In this document: positions 42,803 through 51,037 of the stretch, piece by piece
Layout: the number at the start of each line of letters is the position of its first letter
How positions within the stretch are numbered: the first letter of the stretch is position 1
Source: Aliiroseovarius sp. S1123
GTDB taxonomy: Bacteria; Pseudomonadota; Alphaproteobacteria; Rhodobacterales; Rhodobacteraceae
Assembly: GCF_023015885.1 (NCBI RefSeq)
Contig: NZ_JALKBE010000008.1
Location: forward strand, 1-64,000
Direction of reading: 5' to 3'
DNA: 64,000 nt
Translations under genes and position numbers: made by a program
The notes under the pieces: generated by a model
The model's input: only the letters and a program-made list of their open reading frames with translations
Told to the model about the DNA's origin: nothing
Databases searched by the model: none

Positions 42803-44257
42803 TCAAACCCCCGTCGCCGGAATGCCGGTGCGTTGCACAGGTTGCGGAGCCGTCAGTTCTTTCCACTTGGATAGCGCGGTGTTGACGGTCGCGTTGGGTT
42901 CCCGGGCGACAAACTGTCCATGACCTTCCTGCGTGCGGATCTCTCCGTCATGCACAGCCACTTGGCCGCGTGTCAGGGTGAAGCGCGGCAGGCCTTTGAC
43001 CTCGTGCCCTTCAAAGACGTTGTAGTCGATCGAGGATTGCTGCGTGCCTGCGGCAATGGTCTTGGACTTCTCGGGATCCCAGACGACAAGGTCGGCATCG
43101 GCACCAACCAGAACGGCCCCCTTGCGTGGGTAGCAGTTCAGGATCTTCGCGATATTGGTCGAGGTGACGGCGACAAATTCGTTCATCGTCAGACGGCCCG
43201 TGGCAACGCCGTGCGTCCACAGCATTGGCATCCGATCCTCAAGCCCGCCGGTCCCGTTCGGGATCTTGGTGAAGTCGCCCACGCCATAGCGTTTCTGCTC
43301 GGTCGTGAAGGCGCAGTGGTCGGTGGCTACGACGGACAGCGAGCCCGACTGCAGACCTGCCCACAGGCTGTCTTGGTGTTTCTGATTGCGGAAGGGGGGC
43401 GACATAACGCGACGCGCAGCGTGGTCCCAATCGGTGTTGAAATACTCGCTTTCATCCAGCGTTAGGTGCTGGATCAGCGGCTCGCCCCAAACGCGCTTAC
43501 CCTGCATACGGGCGCGGCGAATTGCTTCGTGCGCTTCCTCGCAAGAGACATGCACCACGTAAAGCGGTGCGCCTGCCATATCGGCGATCATGATCGCGCG
43601 GTTGGTGGCCTCGCCTTCGACCTGAGAGGGGCGGGAATAGGCGTGTGCCTCGGGCCCGGTGTTGCCTTGGGCCAGCAGTTTGGCGGAAAGCTCGGCAATC
43701 ACGTCGCCGTTTTCGGCATGGACCATTGGGGTCGCGCCCAGCTCGGCCAGGCGGGTGAACGACGAATACAGCTCGTCATCATTCACCATCAGCGCGCCTT
43801 TGTAGGCCAAGAAGTGCTTGAACGTGTTGATGCCGCGCTCCTGCACGACGGTCTGCATGTCGTTAAACACCTGCTCGCCCCACCATGTCACGGCCATGTG
43901 GAACGAATAATCACAGTTCGCGCGGGTTGATTTGTTGTCCCAACGCTTCAGCGCATCCAGCAGGCTTTCGCCTTGGTTGGGCAGGCAGAAATCCACCACC
44001 ATCGTGGTGCCGCCCGCCAGACCGGCGCGCGTGCCGCTTTCGAAATCATCCGATGAGTAGGTGCCCATAAATGGCATCTCGAGGTGCACATGCGGGTCGA
44101 TCCCACCGGGCATGACATAGCAGCCGGTGGCGTCGAGCACCTCGTCGCCTTTCAGGTCCGGCCCGATTTCGATGATCTTGCCGTGGTCGATCAGGACGTC
44201 TGCTTTGTAGGTCAGGTCGGCTGTGACGACGGTTCCGTTTTTGATGACTTTGGTCAT
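42803..44257 (-). CDS. hydA: Dihydropyrimidinase (D-hydantoinase)
   Basis: A 484-residue zinc amidohydrolase that opens dihydrouracil or dihydrothymine to N-carbamoyl-beta-amino acids. The metal ligands begin with His56 and His58 in DPHVHLE, and the carboxylated lysine is Lys153 in AYKGALMVND. GGAGGAAAC lies before the ATG at 44257. It is the second catabolic step after PreT/PreA. The small exported protein gene ends one base before it and the ABC ATPase follows, so enzyme and import are in one operon. Confidence 0.95.
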   Translation of the reverse strand: MTKVIKNGTVVTADLTYKADVLIDHGKIIEIGPDLKGDEVLDATGCYVMPGGIDPHVHLEMPFMGTYSSDDFESGTRAGLAGGTTMVVDFCLPNQGESLLDALKRWDNKSTRANCDYSFHMAVTWWGEQVFNDMQTVVQERGINTFKHFLAYKGALMVNDDELYSSFTRLAELGATPMVHAENGDVIAELSAKLLAQGNTGPEAHAYSRPSQVEGEATNRAIMIADMAGAPLYVVHVSCEEAHEAIRRARMQGKRVWGEPLIQHLTLDESEYFNTDWDHAARRVMSPPFRNQKHQDSLWAGLQSGSLSVVATDHCAFTTEQKRYGVGDFTKIPNGTGGLEDRMPMLWTHGVATGRLTMNEFVAVTSTNIAKILNCYPRKGAVLVGADADLVVWDPEKSKTIAAGTQQSSIDYNVFEGHEVKGLPRFTLTRGQVAVHDGEIRTQEGHGQFVAREPNATVNTALSKWKELTAPQPVQRTGIPATGV

Positions 44258-44258
44258 T

Positions 44259-44630
44259 TTAGTTTCCTCCACACCCAGCCGAGCGCGAGCCCAGCACTGT
44301 TGGTAGCCCCTTAAGGGCGTTGAATGCGGCAAACATGATCGGATGATCCTCGATTGGTCCGCATTGGATTTTAATTAGTGTTCGAATTGAAGATGCATCG
44401 ATGGCCGATATGTCAGCCCGTTCAGCGCACAAGTCAGTGCCGCCTAAATATAGGTTGGCGCCAGTCCAATAGCCTTGCACCCAATTGGTCAAGTCCTGGT
44501 CAGACACTGTCTGCAATTCCTCGCACAGGGTCATCCCAATCCCAGTTGCCCAGTCCAATCGAGATTCAGCAACGGCATCTCCAATGGGCAAAGTTGCAAT
44601 TACAAAAGCTATCGGAGCAGTGAGTCTCAC
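44259..44630 (-). CDS. Small exported protein embedded in the pyrimidine operon
   Basis: A 123-residue protein with a signal peptide (RLTAPIAFVIATLPIGDAVA, probably cut after AVA). The mature part has four cysteines (MTLCEEL, TDLCAE, IQCGPI, AGCGGN), suggesting two disulfides. I do not recognise the family; the size and cysteine count recall small periplasmic proteins of the HdeA/Rap1a kind, a weak comparison. It starts with GTG in a GTGA overlap with hyuC and ends one base before hydA, so it is almost certainly cotranslated with both. A periplasmic protein between two cytoplasmic enzymes is unusual. Confidence 0.7.
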   Translation of the reverse strand: MRLTAPIAFVIATLPIGDAVAESRLDWATGIGMTLCEELQTVSDQDLTNWVQGYWTGANLYLGGTDLCAERADISAIDASSIRTLIKIQCGPIEDHPIMFAAFNALKGLPTVLGSRSAGCGGN

Positions 44631-45874
44631 TTCACAATCTCCGCCGTCGCCAACACAGCATGCATCAACACATCCGTGCCAGCCGCAGCCCAGTCCTTGG
44701 AAATGTCCTCGGCCTCATTATGGCTCAGGCCATCCACACAGGGGCACATGATCATTGCGGTTGGATAGATCTCGTTGATCCAGCAGGCGTCGTGGCCCGC
44801 GCCGGACACGATATCCATGTGGCTATAGCCCAGCTCTTCCGCCGCATCGCGGACCGCTTTCACGCAGCCCTCATCAAAGGCGGGTGGGTCGAAGGTTCCG
44901 ACCATTTCCCAGCTCATCTCGACGCCAATGTCAGCACAAAGCTTCGGCGCGCGCTCGTCAAACTCAGCGATCATTGCGTCGATGACCTCTTGCAGGTGCG
45001 AGCGGAAATCGACGGTGCAGACAACCTTGCCGGGGATGATGTTGCGCGAGTTCGGATAGACGTCGATATGCCCGATGGCCCCCACCGCGTTGGGCTGGTG
45101 CTTCATCGCGATCTCGTGCACCAGTTCAGTGATCAGCGCCAAGCCACGGCCGGCGTTGATCCGCATGGGCATGGGGGTCGAGCCTGTGTGGCTTTCCTTG
45201 CCGATGATGGTCACTTCCAGCCAGTTCAGCCCTTGGCCGTGGGTGACGACACCGATGTCTTTGCCTTCGGCCTCCAGAATGGGGCCTTGTTCGATGTGCA
45301 GTTCAAACATCGCGTGCATCTTACGTGCGCCGACTTCCTCGTCACCGACCCAGCCAATGCGTTTCAGCTCGTCGCCGAACTTCTTGCCCTCGGCATCTTC
45401 GCGGTCATAGGCCCAGTCCTGCGTGTGCTTGCCAGCAAACACGCCCGAGGCCAGCATGGCCGGCGCAAAACGCGTGCCTTCTTCGTTGGTCCAGTTGGCA
45501 ACGACGATCGGGTGCTTCGTTTTGACGTTCAGGTCATTCATCGTGCGGACTGCTTCCAATCCGCCAAGCACGCCAAGCACGCCGTCATATTTGCCACCGG
45601 TGGGCTGCGTATCCAAATGCGAGCCCATATAGACGGGCAGGGCGTCCGGGTCTTCGCCGGGGCGGGTGGCAAACATGTTGCCCATCGTGTCGACGCCCAT
45701 GGTCATGCCGGCGGCTTCGCACCATGTTTGGAACAGCGCGCGCCCTTCGGCGTCTTCATCCGTCAGCGTCTGGCGATTGTTGCCGCCTGCGATGCCGGGG
45801 CCGATCTTGGCCATCTCCATCAGACTGTCCCACAGCCGATCCGCATCGATGCGCAGGTTTTTCCTGTTGGTCAT
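44627..45874 (-). CDS. hyuC: Zinc-dependent N-carbamoyl-amino-acid hydrolase (beta-ureidopropionase type)
   Basis: An M20-family amidohydrolase of about 415 residues that removes ammonia and carbon dioxide from N-carbamoyl-beta-alanine, the third step of reductive uracil breakdown. Metal ligands include His86 in GSHLDTQPTGGKYDG and the acidic NWTNEEGTRF segment. The family is also called HyuC or AmaB and includes allantoate amidohydrolase, so specificity rests on its neighbours. The ATG at 45874 is six bases after GGGAG. It is the first gene of the unit and divergent from the tetR pair. Confidence 0.92.
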   Translation of the reverse strand: MTNRKNLRIDADRLWDSLMEMAKIGPGIAGGNNRQTLTDEDAEGRALFQTWCEAAGMTMGVDTMGNMFATRPGEDPDALPVYMGSHLDTQPTGGKYDGVLGVLGGLEAVRTMNDLNVKTKHPIVVANWTNEEGTRFAPAMLASGVFAGKHTQDWAYDREDAEGKKFGDELKRIGWVGDEEVGARKMHAMFELHIEQGPILEAEGKDIGVVTHGQGLNWLEVTIIGKESHTGSTPMPMRINAGRGLALITELVHEIAMKHQPNAVGAIGHIDVYPNSRNIIPGKVVCTVDFRSHLQEVIDAMIAEFDERAPKLCADIGVEMSWEMVGTFDPPAFDEGCVKAVRDAAEELGYSHMDIVSGAGHDACWINEIYPTAMIMCPCVDGLSHNEAEDISKDWAAAGTDVLMHAVLATAEIVK

Positions 45875-45951
45875 ATTCATCTCCCTTTGGGTACACATGA
45901 ATGTGTATGCGGAATTTAGATTCCGTCTTGTCCTCAGGCTGGATGATTTCT

Positions 45952-45986
45952 GCACGATCGGTCAACATTTTTCTGAACGATCGTGC
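45952..45986. promoter_or_regulatory. Inverted repeat in the hyuC / tetR divergent promoter region
   Basis: GCACGATCG (45952-45960) and CGATCGTGC (45978-45986) are perfect nine-base arms around 17 bases. It lies about 80 bases upstream of hyuC and 94 upstream of the first tetR. A second, smaller pair, CTGCG and CAGAC-type CGCAG, spans 46033-46051. This operator candidate is unlike the preT palindrome at 50915. Confidence 0.5.
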
Positions 45987-46079: not shown

Positions 46080-46712
46080 ATGGCGACAAAAGGCATTCAA
46101 AGCCGCAACCGGCAAGAAATCACAGCGCGGATTCTGACCGCAGCTGAACGCGTGTTCGCCGAGTTCGGATATGCGGGCGCCTCGATCAGCCGGATCGCGG
46201 CAGAGGCGGGCATTCCGAAATCCAACGTGGTCTATTACTTCGAGACCAAGGAGCTTCTCTATCGTCGCGTCGTGGGCGAGATCTTTGACATCTGGCGCGC
46301 GGCGGCGGACAGTATCACCGTCGACAATGATCCGATCCAGGCGCTGGGCGATTATATCGACACGAAGCTCGATCTGGCGCGGACGCGGCCCTATGGCTCG
46401 AAGGTCTGGGCGAATGAGATCATCCAGCGTGCGCCGATTGTGCAGGACTATCTGGAAGATGAACTGCGGTCCTGGACCGAGGACCGGATCGTGGTGATCG
46501 AGGCGTGGATCGCGAACGGAAAGATCCGCCCGATCAGCGCACGCCATCTGCTTTATGCGATCTGGGCAACAACCCAGCACTATGCGGATTTTACCCATCA
46601 GATCACCACGCTGAACGAAGGGGTCGAGCTGACGAACCGCCAGTGGGGCGAGACCAAATCTGCGGTGAAAGATCTGCTTCTGCGTGGCGTTGAAAAGCAC
46701 GGTGATGCGTAA
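46080..46712 (+). CDS. TetR regulator, RutR type (first of a tandem pair)
   Basis: A 210-residue TetR-family protein. The helix-turn-helix is at about 31-55 (ISRIAAEAGIPKSNVVYYF). The C-terminal domain, with YGSKVWANEIIQRAP and AIWATTQHYADFTHQI, is that of RutR (YcdC), the uracil- and thymine-sensing regulator of Escherichia coli. It is divergent from hyuC and overlaps the next tetR by one base (TAATG). Likely control of pyrimidine genes is inferred from family and position. Confidence 0.88.
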   Translation: MATKGIQSRNRQEITARILTAAERVFAEFGYAGASISRIAAEAGIPKSNVVYYFETKELLYRRVVGEIFDIWRAAADSITVDNDPIQALGDYIDTKLDLARTRPYGSKVWANEIIQRAPIVQDYLEDELRSWTEDRIVVIEAWIANGKIRPISARHLLYAIWATTQHYADFTHQITTLNEGVELTNRQWGETKSAVKDLLLRGVEKHGDA

Positions 46713-47338
46713 TGGCGCGGGCGGGCACAACAGCGCGTAAGACGCGCAATCAGATGGAAAAGCGACAAGCGATTTTTGAGGCCGCTTTGGACGTGTTCTC
46801 GGAAAAAGGGTTGCGTGGCGCGACGTTAGAGCAGGTGGCGAAGGCCGCCGGGTTGTCCAAGCAGAACGTGGTCTATTACTTCGCCGGTAAGGATGAAATT
46901 TACGCCGAGCTTTTGGAAAGCCTGCTTCAGAAATGGGTGCAGCCGCTGCATGACCTGACGGCGGATGGTGATCCGATGGACGAGATCCTGACCTATGTCT
47001 CGCGCAAGGTGCAGATGTCGCGCAATATGCCCCGCGAAAGCCGCTTGTTCGCAACCGAAATTCTGCATGGTGCCCCGCGTTTGGGAGAGGTGCTGCCGAC
47101 GGATCTGAAGGCTCTGGTCGACGAAAAAGCCGCGATCATTCAGGGCTGGATGGACGCGGGTAAGCTGGCACCGCTCGACCCGCACCACCTGATCTTCTCG
47201 ATCTGGGCGATGACGCAGCACTATGCGGATTTCGATGTGCAGGTGCGGTCCGTGTTGGGGTCAGAGCGTTCGGCCACGCGGTTTGAGGATGCCGAGCGGT
47301 TCATCAAGGATATGCTGATCAGGACGCTTCGGCCCTAA
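46712..47338 (+). CDS. TetR regulator, RutR type (second of a tandem pair)
   Basis: A 208-residue paralogue of the upstream protein, with the same architecture: helix-turn-helix near residues 38-60 (LEQVAKAAGLSKQNVVYYF) and a RutR-type C-terminus (SIWAMTQHYADFDVQ). Both share NVVYYF and QHYADF. One-base overlap with the first tetR implies translational coupling and perhaps heterodimers. Its last 20 bases overlap the convergent drug/metabolite transporter gene. Confidence 0.88.
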   Translation: MARAGTTARKTRNQMEKRQAIFEAALDVFSEKGLRGATLEQVAKAAGLSKQNVVYYFAGKDEIYAELLESLLQKWVQPLHDLTADGDPMDEILTYVSRKVQMSRNMPRESRLFATEILHGAPRLGEVLPTDLKALVDEKAAIIQGWMDAGKLAPLDPHHLIFSIWAMTQHYADFDVQVRSVLGSERSATRFEDAERFIKDMLIRTLRP

Positions 47339-48216: not shown

Positions 48217-49521
48217 TTACTCCGCAGCGGCTGCGCTGGGGTTGTTGGGGTGGGTCGTCCAGTTTGCATACTCATCCACAACAGGCTTTCCGGTCCGTTC
48301 ATCCATGGCGCCGGGCGCGATGGTTTCCATCGTGATACAGCCTTCGACGGGGCAGACATTGACGCACAGGTTGCAGGCAACGCATTCGTCGTCTTTTACA
48401 TCAAAGACACGGTCTTCGGACATGGTGATTGCCTGATGCGAGGTGTCTTCGCAAGCGGCAAAGCAACGGCCACATTTGATGCAATCGTCCTGACTGATCC
48501 GCGCCTTGGTGACGTGGTTCAGGTTCAGATATTGCCAGTCGGTGACGTTTGGAACGGCGCGACCTACAATTTCGTCAATCGAATTGTAACCCTGTTCGTC
48601 CATCCATTGGCTGAGGCCCGAGATCATCTCTTGCACCACTTTGAAGCCATAGGTCATCGCTGCGGTACAGGCCTGCACATTACCTGCGCCAAGCGCCATA
48701 AACTCGGCCGCGTCGCGCCACGTGGTCACGCCACCAATGCCCGAGATGGGCAGTCCATGCGTGCCGGGATTGCGGGCAATCTCGGCCACCATGTTCAGGG
48801 CGATGGGTTTCACCGCTGGACCGCAATAGCCGCCATGGGTGCCTTTGCCATCGATCATCGGTTCGGGCGACATGGCGTCCAGATTGACGGATGTGATCGA
48901 GTTGATCGTATTGATCAGACTGACCGCATCCGCGCCACCATCTTTTGCCGCCTGAGCAGGCATCAGAATGTTGGTGATGTTGGGCGTCAGTTTCACGATC
49001 ACCGGCAGATCGGTGGCTTCTTTACACCAGCGCGTGACCATCTCGATATATTCGGGGACTTGGCCAACAGCCGATCCCATACCGCGTTCGGCCATCCCAT
49101 GCGGGCAACCGAAGTTCAGTTCAAACCCGTCACAACCAGTTTCCGCGATGCGGGGAATGATCTCTTTCCACGCGGCTTCTTCGCAGGGCACCATGACCGA
49201 GGCGATCAGCGCGTGATCGGGATAGTCCTTCTTCACGCGGGTCATTTCGGCAAGGTTGACCTCAAGCGGTCGGTCGGTGATCAGCTCGATATTGTTCAGG
49301 CCCAGAAGGCGACGATCCGCGCCGTGGATCGCGCCGTAGCGCGGGCCATTGACGTTGACGACCGGAGGGCCTTCCATGCCCAGCGTTTTCCAGACCACAC
49401 CGCCCCAACCGGCCTCGAACGCGCGGCGGACATTGTATTCTTTGTCCGTGGGCGGAGCCGAGGCCAGCCAGAACGGGTTGGGAGATGAAATTCCAAGAAA
49501 GTTTGATGTCAGATCGGCCAT
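48217..49521 (-). CDS. preA: NAD-dependent dihydropyrimidine dehydrogenase, subunit PreA
   Basis: A 434-residue FMN barrel protein with a C-terminal ferredoxin domain that reduces uracil and thymine to dihydropyrimidines together with PreT. The two [4Fe-4S] motifs are CIKCGRCFAAC from Cys347 and CVACNLCVNVCP from Cys380. The barrel has FELNFGCPHG and the catalytic Cys of that motif. Its start overlaps the preT stop in TAATG, so subunits are made in balance. Confidence 0.95.
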   Translation of the reverse strand: MADLTSNFLGISSPNPFWLASAPPTDKEYNVRRAFEAGWGGVVWKTLGMEGPPVVNVNGPRYGAIHGADRRLLGLNNIELITDRPLEVNLAEMTRVKKDYPDHALIASVMVPCEEAAWKEIIPRIAETGCDGFELNFGCPHGMAERGMGSAVGQVPEYIEMVTRWCKEATDLPVIVKLTPNITNILMPAQAAKDGGADAVSLINTINSITSVNLDAMSPEPMIDGKGTHGGYCGPAVKPIALNMVAEIARNPGTHGLPISGIGGVTTWRDAAEFMALGAGNVQACTAAMTYGFKVVQEMISGLSQWMDEQGYNSIDEIVGRAVPNVTDWQYLNLNHVTKARISQDDCIKCGRCFAACEDTSHQAITMSEDRVFDVKDDECVACNLCVNVCPVEGCITMETIAPGAMDERTGKPVVDEYANWTTHPNNPSAAAAE

Positions 49522-50861
49522 TAGCTTGCTCCCATCAATGAAGTGTGGATGTCCATGGCCGCATCGCGACCTTCGGCAACGGCGGTGACGGTCAGGTCAT
49601 CTCCGCCCGAGGCACAGTCGCCCCCGGCCCAGACGCCGCCAGCACTTGTGCGCTGCGCATCGTCGACCTTGATCTTGCCGCCCTCCAAGGTCAGCGCGTC
49701 GGGCGTATCGCCCAGCTTTTGACCGATGGCTTTGAACAGCTGATCGGCGGGCAGGGTGAAGGTCTCGTCCAGCGTGACCAGCTTACCGTTTTGGGTTTCG
49801 GTATACGCAAAGGTGACGCCGGTCAGCGATCCGTTGCCTTCGACACCCACGGGGGTCGCGTTGCAAATCAGGGTGACGCCCTTTTGCTGCGCAAGCTCCT
49901 GTTCGAAGCTGGATGCGGCCATCGCCTCTTGCCCACGGCGATAGACGATGGTGACGTCTTCTGCGCCCAAAAGCTTGGCCTGCACGCCCGCATCAATCGC
50001 GGTCATACCGCCACCGATAACGACAACGCGACGACCGACGGGCAGGGAGGTCAGATCAGACGCCTGACGCAGTTCTGCGATGAAATCAACGGCGTCCGAG
50101 ACGTTGTCCTTGTCCTCGCCGTCCATTCCCAATGCGTTCACGGCCGACAATCCCATACCAAGGAACACTGCATCGAAATCGCTTTGCAGCGCGTCCAGCG
50201 TGATCCCGTCCCCAAGCGATTGGCCATAGCGGATCTCGATCCCGCCGATGGAGAGAAGCCAGTCTAGCTCGCGCTGGGCGAAGTCGTTGGTGGATTTATA
50301 GGCGGCGATGCCGAACTCGTTCAGGCCACCCCCTTTGGCGCGGGCCTCGAATACCACAACATCATGGCCCAGCATGGCCAGACGGTGCGCACAGGACAGG
50401 CCCGCAGGACCGGCGCCCACAACGGCAACCGATTTCCCGGTTTTGTCTGCGCGGGTGAAGGGATGCGTGTTTGATGCCATCAGCGTGTCGGTCGCATAGC
50501 GCTGCAGACGTCCGATCTCGACCGGCTTGCCTTCTGCGGTTTCTCGTACGCAAACCTCTTCACACAAGGTCTCGGTCGGGCAGACGCGGGCGCACATGCC
50601 ACCGAGTATGTTCTGGTTAAGAATGGTCTTCGCCGCAGCCTCGGGCGTGCCAGTTGCGATCTGCCGGATGAACAACGGAATGTCGATCGAGGTGGGGCAG
50701 GCCGTCATACACGGTGCGTCGTGGCAGAAATAGCAGCGATCCGCTGCGACCAATGCCTCGTGCCCATCATATTCCGGGTGAAGATCTGTAAAGTTGTCGG
50801 CAACTTGCGTCGGGTCTAACCGCCCGGCTGCAACGCCGTTTTCCCTGTTGATATGTGCCAT
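49521..50861 (-). CDS. preT: NAD-dependent dihydropyrimidine dehydrogenase, subunit PreT
   Basis: A subunit of about 446 residues that takes electrons from NADH and passes them to PreA. The N-terminal Fe-S domain has CYFCHDAPCMTACP, followed by an FAD site (VVGAGPAGLSCAHRL) and an NAD site (VVVIGGGMTAIDAG). This is the glutamate-synthase small-subunit fold. The ATG at 50861 has AAGGA eight bases before; longer in-frame extensions would run into the operator at 50915-50932. Confidence 0.94.
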   Translation of the reverse strand: MAHINRENGVAAGRLDPTQVADNFTDLHPEYDGHEALVAADRCYFCHDAPCMTACPTSIDIPLFIRQIATGTPEAAAKTILNQNILGGMCARVCPTETLCEEVCVRETAEGKPVEIGRLQRYATDTLMASNTHPFTRADKTGKSVAVVGAGPAGLSCAHRLAMLGHDVVVFEARAKGGGLNEFGIAAYKSTNDFAQRELDWLLSIGGIEIRYGQSLGDGITLDALQSDFDAVFLGMGLSAVNALGMDGEDKDNVSDAVDFIAELRQASDLTSLPVGRRVVVIGGGMTAIDAGVQAKLLGAEDVTIVYRRGQEAMAASSFEQELAQQKGVTLICNATPVGVEGNGSLTGVTFAYTETQNGKLVTLDETFTLPADQLFKAIGQKLGDTPDALTLEGGKIKVDDAQRTSAGGVWAGGDCASGGDDLTVTAVAEGRDAAMDIHTSLMGAS

Positions 50862-50914
50862 AGCTGGTTCCTTGGATTGGCTTTGGTGCAACCAGTAGGA
50901 CATAGAATCAAAAG

Positions 50915-50932
50915 TTTTACCAGATGGTAAAA
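50915..50932. promoter_or_regulatory. RutR-like operator upstream of preT
   Basis: TTTTACCA-GA-TGGTAAAA is a perfect 8+2+8 palindrome, 53 bases before the preT start. It closely resembles the published Escherichia coli RutR consensus TTGACCA-N2-TGGTCAA: the inner CCA-N2-TGG core, spacing and length are the same, and the flanks differ by a few bases. Given two RutR-type genes in the locus, this is the best-supported operator in the window. Binding is inferred. Confidence 0.7.
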
Positions 50933-51010: not shown

Positions 51011-51037
51011 AAAGCCGCGACGGGCTGTCGCGGCTTT
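51011..51037 (-). terminator. Rho-independent terminator after ychF
   Basis: AAAGCCGCGAC (51011-51021) and GTCGCGGCTTT (51027-51037) pair perfectly over eleven bases with a five-base loop. On the minus strand TTTTTCG follows, so it ends ychF transcripts coming from the right. Confidence 0.85.

What the first reader, a model, noticed from the sequence alone, without database searches (positions are those of the whole stretch)
50915..50932. Perfect palindrome TTTTACCA-GA-TGGTAAAA matching the RutR operator form
The core CCA-N2-TGG and the 8+2+8 layout match the Escherichia coli RutR site, 53 bases before preT and 3.5 kb from the tetR pair. It gives a concrete prediction that this family controls preTA here, and that its flanks have changed from TTGA to TTTTA.
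Basis: partly seen in the sequence, partly recalled or inferred. Interest (0 to 1): 0.6.

Follow-up and report, generated by a model that had tools for sequence, protein, structure and literature searches.

The report
RutR-type operator controlling pyrimidine breakdown
The palindrome is a real, conserved DNA site in front of the genes that start uracil and thymine breakdown, most likely a switch bound by a relative of E. coli's uracil sensor RutR; this kind of control is already known, but here it comes with a second regulator copy and altered sites.

Summary
Confirmed: TTTTACCAGATGGTAAAA lies at 50915-50932, 53 bases before preT. Symmetry alone is weak evidence (about 1.25 such palindromes expected in 64 kb); conservation decides. 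The 80 nearest preT loci (80 of 474) all carry a version within 120 bp upstream (controls 7 and 6 of 1600). A motif-only search hit 43 of 61 family genomes; of 29 new sites fetched, 27 lie 50-100 bp before preT. Class-wide, 31 of 47 preT genes have a box.

The genome's only two RutR-family (TetR_C_3) proteins are the tetR pair. Of 50 relatives, 36 have one, TetR2-type, and keep the box, so TetR2 is the likeliest binder. Both paralogues keep RutR's five uracil-contact residues.

In 54 of 80 loci the box is asymmetric and its right half fits a -35 element. TetR1 goes with a doubled box before the ureidopropionase gene, or in this clade a composite repeat. RutR-like control of this pathway is known; the paralogue and operator split is the less familiar part. 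Binding is untested.

The parts
50915..50932 (.). preT operator, TTTTACCAGATGGTAAAA (RutR-type box with half-site TTACC)
50894..50923 (-). putative preTA promoter: -35 position (CTGGTA, 50918-50923) inside the right half of the operator, TG-preceded -10-like CCTACT at 50894-50899; a consensus scan found no promoter here, so this is inferred from relatives
   Evidence: inference
49521..50861 (-). preT, NAD(P)-binding subunit of dihydropyrimidine dehydrogenase; named from Pfam Fer4_20 (dihydropyrimidine dehydrogenase domain II), Pyr_redox_2 and its place beside preA; none of the 25 best NCBIfam matches shown passes its cut-off
48217..49521 (-). preA, dihydropyrimidine dehydrogenase subunit (NF006183, 718 bits, cut-off 335)
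46712..47338 (+). tetR2: RutR-like TetR_C_3 regulator, on the E. coli RutR side of the tree; proposed preT repressor
46080..46712 (+). tetR1: divergent RutR-family paralogue, found only in some relatives
45952..45986 (.). composite inverted repeat (13-base arms, 9-base spacer; one mismatch between the arms in the window) between tetR1 and the ureidopropionase gene; stands where relatives have one or two RutR boxes
44627..45880 (-). M20-family carbamoyl-amide hydrolase, probably beta-ureidopropionase (third step); NCBIfam labels over cut-off are allantoate amidohydrolase subfamily and hydantoinase/carbamoylase family
   Evidence: function inferred from the cluster
42803..44257 (-). dihydropyrimidinase (TIGR02033, 603 bits, cut-off 393)
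51011..51037 (-). terminator-like hairpin downstream of the gene before preT (reads as ychF, named by eye), so preT probably needs its own promoter

Best explanation
The palindrome is the operator of the preTA promoter. A dimer of TetR2, the RutR-like regulator encoded 3.6 kb away in the same pyrimidine-degradation cluster, binds it. The right half lies where relatives carry a -35-like element, so bound TetR2 blocks RNA polymerase. When uracil (or thymine) fills the pocket TetR2 releases the DNA, and preTA, whose product catalyses the first reductive step, is made. Shown here: sequence, conservation, position, the regulator census and pocket residues. Inferred: binding, repression, ligand, promoter.
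For: 80 of 80 nearest preT loci keep the box (controls 7/1600 and 6/1600). A motif-only genome search returns preT: 43 of 61 genomes hit against 6 of 61 for the reversed pattern; of 29 new sites fetched, 27 lie 50-100 bp before the preT match, in the same orientation to it. Class-wide, 31 of 47 preT genes have a box against 38 of 1880 shuffles. The own genome holds exactly two TetR_C_3 proteins, this pair. Of 50 relatives (50 of the 80 loci), 36 hold only one, TetR2-type in 36 of 36, with the box kept at 1-3 mismatches in 36 of 36. W77, Y97, W167, Q171 and Q179, the uracil contacts of E. coli RutR (passages of PMC10891134), are kept in 85 of 85 proteins. In 54 of 80 loci the right half reads TTGATA, with an xAxxxT hexamer at spacing 16-18 and none at 14, 15, 19 or 20. 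A terminator-like hairpin separates preT from the gene upstream. Precedent: P. putida PydR represses dihydropyrimidine dehydrogenase (title in a reference list).
Against: No binding or expression data. Both TetR proteins score below the NCBIfam RutR cut-offs (TetR2 234 of 368 and 208 of 230 bits; TetR1 176 of 368 and 151 of 230). 16 of 47 preT genes in the class sample lack a box at 2 mismatches; 18 of 61 family genomes lack the motif as written; 2 of 29 fetched motif sites have no preT beside them. The window's own promoter is poor by consensus (0 found). The 80 loci are the nearest 80 of 474, not a random sample. The regulator census covered 50 of the 80 loci, and the completeness of those genomes is not given. 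In this clade TetR1 is also present and also has the pocket.
Confidence: 0.85

Rival explanations
1. The site is bound mainly by TetR1, or by both paralogues equally or as competitors.
For: TetR1 is encoded in the same cluster and keeps the uracil-contact residues and the lysines K52 and K62. In this clade its recognition helix (PKSNVVYYF) resembles that of TetR2 (SKQNVVYYF). The 8 of 80 loci with the exact preT palindrome, L004-L011, all have TetR1.
Against: 36 of 50 genomes have no TetR1 and keep the preT box. TetR1 presence goes with changes at the ureidopropionase/tetR1 promoter region instead: 13 of 13 TetR1 loci outside the clade have a box pair 29-34 bp apart.
Confidence: 0.1
2. The operator belongs to an unrelated regulator, and the RutR likeness is coincidental.
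For: Half-sites differ from the E. coli-like form (TTACC, not TGACC), and most of the 80 relatives are not symmetric.
Against: The same relatives carry a RutR-like box, mostly TGACC-N4-GGTCA, before the ureidopropionase gene: 41 of 48 TetR1-free loci have exactly one, and 34 of those 41 have a divergent tetR2 beside it. In the class sample outside the family the preT box is G/G in 19 of 28. TTTACC-form boxes also occur at tetR2/ureidopropionase in L057, L072 and L078.
Confidence: 0.04
3. Chance palindrome or a weak RNA hairpin without regulatory role.
For: About 1.25 perfect 8+2+8 palindromes are expected in 64 kb, and a transcript could form a 7-pair stem (-5.6 kcal/mol; 15 of 200 shuffles fold as well, z -1.37).
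Against: Conservation, near-fixed position and motif-only recovery of preT. Most relatives break the symmetry while keeping the other letters, which is not what selection for a hairpin would give (inference).
Confidence: 0.01

Closest known systems
E. coli RutR and its operators (rutA-rutR, carAB)
   Same: TetR_C_3 (YcdC-like) regulator; palindromic site of about 16 bp; uracil-contact residues identical.
   Different: E. coli RutR controls the rut operon for pyrimidine degradation; here the reductive pathway (preTA, dihydropyrimidinase, ureidopropionase). Half-site is TTACC at preT. Two paralogues. NCBIfam RutR cut-offs not reached.
Pseudomonas putida PydR (Hidese et al. 2012; only the title seen, in the reference list of PMC7332683)
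   Same: By its title, a RutR-like regulator repressing the dihydropyrimidine dehydrogenase gene of the reductive pathway.
   Different: Operator and number of paralogues could not be compared; I did not see the paper.
RutR regulons in Proteobacteria (Leyn et al. 2016, PMC5343134; abstract, section 9 and passages seen)
   Same: Lists RutR sites for pyrimidine catabolism in 68 genomes of 13 taxa and states that the RutR motif has taxon-specific substitutions.
   Different: The text seen does not give the alphaproteobacterial motif, a preT/-35 overlap, a second paralogue or a doubled box. The RegPrecise database was not available, so a Rhodobacterales motif may already be listed there.

Membership tests
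RutR-family (TetR_C_3 / YcdC-like) regulator | TetR_N plus TetR_C_3 domains over Pfam cut-offs | tested here: met
   TetR2 173 bits and TetR1 153 bits for PF08362, cut-off 25; TetR_N 47 and 47 bits, cut-off 24
RutR equivalog (NCBIfam TIGR03613, NF011584) | Score above the curated cut-off | tested here: not met
   TetR2 234/368 and 208/230 bits; TetR1 176/368 and 151/230. Neither is filed as RutR in that strict sense; TetR2 is called RutR-like.
RutR-like uracil sensor | Uracil-contact residues W77, Y97, W167, Q171, Q179 (E. coli numbering, from passages of PMC10891134) | tested here: met
   Identical in 85 of 85 aligned TetR1 and TetR2 proteins
RutR-like uracil sensor | Binds uracil and then leaves DNA | not testable with these tools
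   Needs protein and ligand
RutR operator | Palindrome like TTGACCANNTGGTCAA (consensus recalled, not from a call) near the promoter of a pyrimidine gene | tested here: met
   Two of 14 specified bases differ, one in each half, symmetrically; conserved before preT. The E. coli rutA-rutR site differs at 3.
RutR operator | Protein binds the site | not testable with these tools
   Gel shift or footprint needed

The most novel reading that the evidence does not exclude
Two paralogous uracil sensors have divided one degradation pathway. TetR2 keeps preTA through a TTTACC-form operator fused to the -35 box, while TetR1 has taken over the ureidopropionase/dihydropyrimidinase promoter. It did so first through a duplicated RutR box about three helical turns apart and then, in the window's clade (L004-L012: records titled mostly Aliiroseovarius, one Cognatishimia, one unnamed MAG), through a new composite inverted repeat, with changes in both recognition helices. 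The two may answer to different pyrimidines or at different thresholds.
Probability: 0.3. Interest if true: 0.55.

Novelty: new member of a known kind. Interest (0 to 1): 0.35.

Why it matters
It gives a well-supported regulatory assignment for uracil and thymine use in a large, mostly marine bacterial family, and a natural series (one regulator with one box, two regulators with two boxes, two regulators with a rewritten box) in which the co-evolution of paralogous repressors and their operators can be tested directly.

Tried and rejected
Palindrome symmetry as evidence by itself: rejected, about 1.25 expected by chance.

Other copies in the own genome as a wider regulon: the 1-mismatch copy lies inside a luxR-like frame. 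23 positions of TKACC-N4-GGTMA against 11 for the reversed control are too close to chance. I looked at the flanks of 15 of the 23 and at the reading frames around 6. Two have good flanks and lie between frames (L091, L095), but their neighbours are not pyrimidine genes by my reading of the translations.

A PWM scan of the window for further preT-type boxes found nothing above 5 bits besides the preT site at 29.6; the matrix was built from the relatives' preT sites.

Consensus sigma-70 promoter in the window's preT upstream: none; the -35 idea rests on relatives.

The composite repeat as a terminator or attenuator was not excluded; it folds well as RNA (z -4.06). The TTGACC it contains at a -35-like place makes me favour a DNA site (inference).

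Papers: the listings of six searches showed no paper on this operator in Rhodobacterales. Only the listed top hits were seen (for example 20 of 10,539), and the library lacks most subscription journals.

Full report
OBSERVATION. TTTTACCAGATGGTAAAA is at 50915-50932. With up to 3 mismatches the pattern occurs once in the window; dinucleotide shuffles give a mean of 0.01. It is the only perfect 8+2+8 palindrome in the window, but 1.25 are expected from base composition, so symmetry alone proves little. In the whole genome (3.23 Mb) it is the only exact TTTACCANNTGGTAAA; up to 2 mismatches there are two more places, one of them inside a luxR-like frame. preT starts at 50861 on the minus strand, 53 bases away. 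A terminator-like hairpin at 51011-51037 lies between preT and the gene upstream, so preTA probably has its own promoter.

SURROUNDINGS. The cluster reads: dihydropyrimidinase (42803-44257), an M20 carbamoyl hydrolase, probably ureidopropionase (44627-45880), tetR1 (46080-46712) and tetR2 (46712-47338) divergent from it, an EamA transporter, preA, preT. PreA and dihydropyrimidinase pass their NCBIfam cut-offs; the hydrolase passes those of an allantoate amidohydrolase subfamily and of the hydantoinase/carbamoylase family, and its role here is inferred; preT passes none of the 25 best shown and is named from Pfam domains and its place. The order preT-preA-(transporter)-tetR-ureidopropionase-dihydropyrimidinase recurs in many of the 80 loci.

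CONSERVATION. A genome-contig scan with preT gave 474 relatives, of which the best 80 were kept. All 80 have a site with at most 3 mismatches within 120 bp upstream of the preT match: 8 with 0, 47 with 1, 18 with 2, 7 with 3. Controls at 3 mismatches or better: 7 of 1600 random windows from the same loci, 6 of 1600 shuffles, 0 of 64 upstream of dihydropyrimidinase, 0 of 78 upstream of preA, 0 of 5 upstream of the ychF-like gene, and 19 of 67 upstream of the ureidopropionase gene, which has a box of its own, see below. The 80 are nearest neighbours, so I added two wider samples. In a family-wide draw (61 genomes, each of another genus, own included) the motif TTTACCRNYTGRTAAA hits 43 genomes and the reversed control 6. 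The call fetched 29 new loci (its cap was 30 with the own one); 27 of 29 have the preT match starting 50-100 bp from the site, always in the same orientation to it, and 2 do not contain preT. In a class-wide draw (289 genomes, 47 besides the own one with preT at E <= 1e-120), 31 of 47 have a site with at most 2 mismatches to TTKAYCRNNYGRTMAA within 300 bp, against 38 of 1880 shuffles; 16 of 47 do not.

DIRECTION OF CHANGE. In the class sample outside the window's family, 19 of 28 boxes have G in both half-sites (TGACC/GGTCA, the E. coli-like form), 8 are mixed and 1 has T in both; of 3 family members with a box, 2 have T in both and 1 is mixed. Among the 80 loci, 65 have T in both, 12 are mixed, 2 have G in both and 1 is irregular. 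So the G-to-T change at preT is widespread in the family (43 of 61 genomes have a TTTACC form) and not special to this genome. The E. coli rutA-rutR site is itself 3 mismatches from the recalled consensus.

OVERLAP WITH -35. 54 of 80 preT boxes have TTGATA in the right half (TTTACC-type left half, then TTGATA-AA). An xAxxxT hexamer follows TTGATA at spacing 16 (33), 17 (19) or 18 (3; a sequence may count twice) and never at 14, 15, 19 or 20. The asymmetry is then explained by one half doubling as a -35 box (inference). The window and L004-L011 have CTGGTA there instead, which makes the site fully symmetric, and a consensus scan of the window finds no promoter. One genome of another genus also has a symmetric site at preT (L211).

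WHICH PROTEIN. The own genome has exactly two TetR_C_3 proteins, the pair. A tree of 86 proteins splits them into a TetR1 clade (21) and a TetR2 clade (64), with E. coli RutR on the TetR2 side; the tool warns that long branches may mislead. Of 50 relatives searched whole (50 of the 80 loci; completeness not given), 36 have one TetR_C_3 protein and 14 have two. In the 36 it is TetR2-type in all, by best match, tree place or identity, including the 7 where it lies away from the cluster; preT keeps its box in all 36, at 1 (24), 2 (7) or 3 (5) mismatches. TetR2 is thus sufficient for the conserved box. Both paralogues keep all five uracil-contact residues given for E. coli RutR in PMC10891134 (passages), in 85 of 85 proteins, and K52 and K62. 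NCBIfam's RutR cut-offs are not reached, so I call TetR2 RutR-like rather than RutR.

THE SECOND SITE AND THE SECOND PARALOGUE. In the 68 loci with a ureidopropionase gene, I counted TKACC-N4-GGTMA boxes (at most 1 mismatch) in the 420 bp upstream. Without TetR1 in the locus (48): 41 have one, 5 none, 2 two, the latter 249 and 113 bp apart. With TetR1 (20): 10 have two boxes 29-34 bp apart; 10 have none. Of those 10, 9 are the window's clade (L004-L012) and 1 (L082) has its pair, 32 bp apart, upstream of a tetR1 that is not next to the gene. Two TetR1 genes lying elsewhere in the genomes of L058 and L070 also have pairs 33 and 34 bp apart, so 13 of 13 TetR1 loci outside the clade have the pair. 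The sequences are related, so Fisher's value printed overstates their independence. In the window's clade the place is taken by GCACGATCG(G/T)TCA-N9-TGACCGATCGTGC, seen in L004-L012 and the window (45952-45986), and by exact pattern in only 2 of 394 family genomes, both of the window's genus. The recognition helices in this clade also differ: TetR2 SKQN(V/I)VYYF against the commonest SKPNLLYYF, TetR1 PKSNVVYYF against PKAN(L/V/I)HYYF in the rows shown.

MECHANISM. TetR2 dimer on the palindrome blocks the preTA promoter; uracil or thymine releases it. Position, conservation, regulator census and pocket are shown; binding, repression, ligand and transcript start are inferred.

KNOWN OR NEW. RutR sites for pyrimidine catabolism were listed for 68 genomes of 13 proteobacterial taxa, with taxon-specific motif changes noted (PMC5343134), and P. 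putida PydR, a RutR-like repressor of dihydropyrimidine dehydrogenase, is named in a reference title. The preT box is a new member of that kind. Less familiar, and not seen in the listings of six searches, are the -35 fusion, the TetR1-linked doubled box and the rewritten composite site.

Noticed in passing
45952-45986: Clade-specific composite inverted repeat between tetR1 and the ureidopropionase gene; in the commonest form each arm holds one intact RutR half-site (TGACC) and one altered (GTGCA).
   Followed up: partly
L069 and L077 (8911 and 8931); L081 (8894 and 8910): Some relatives have two boxes before preT: about 20 bp apart in L069 and L077, two direct copies 16 bp apart in L081.
   Followed up: no
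L095 (own genome C14:470259) and L091 (C14:117506): TTGACC-N4-GGTCA boxes between reading frames, upstream of what read as a cobS-like ATPase gene and a CarD-like gene (by eye); may be chance or further targets.
   Followed up: no
L002 1389-2102 and 2192-2842 (starting about 1.5 kb beyond the window's end): A luxR-like gene followed by what reads as an autoinducer synthase gene (by eye from the translations).
   Followed up: no
47319-47338: tetR2 and the convergent EamA transporter gene overlap tail to tail by 20 bases.
   Followed up: no
L012 and L135 (same genome): In this Cognatishimia genome TetR1 sits in the cluster while a TetR2-type gene lies on another contig, and the preT box is TTTACTATATGGTCAA.
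   Followed up: partly
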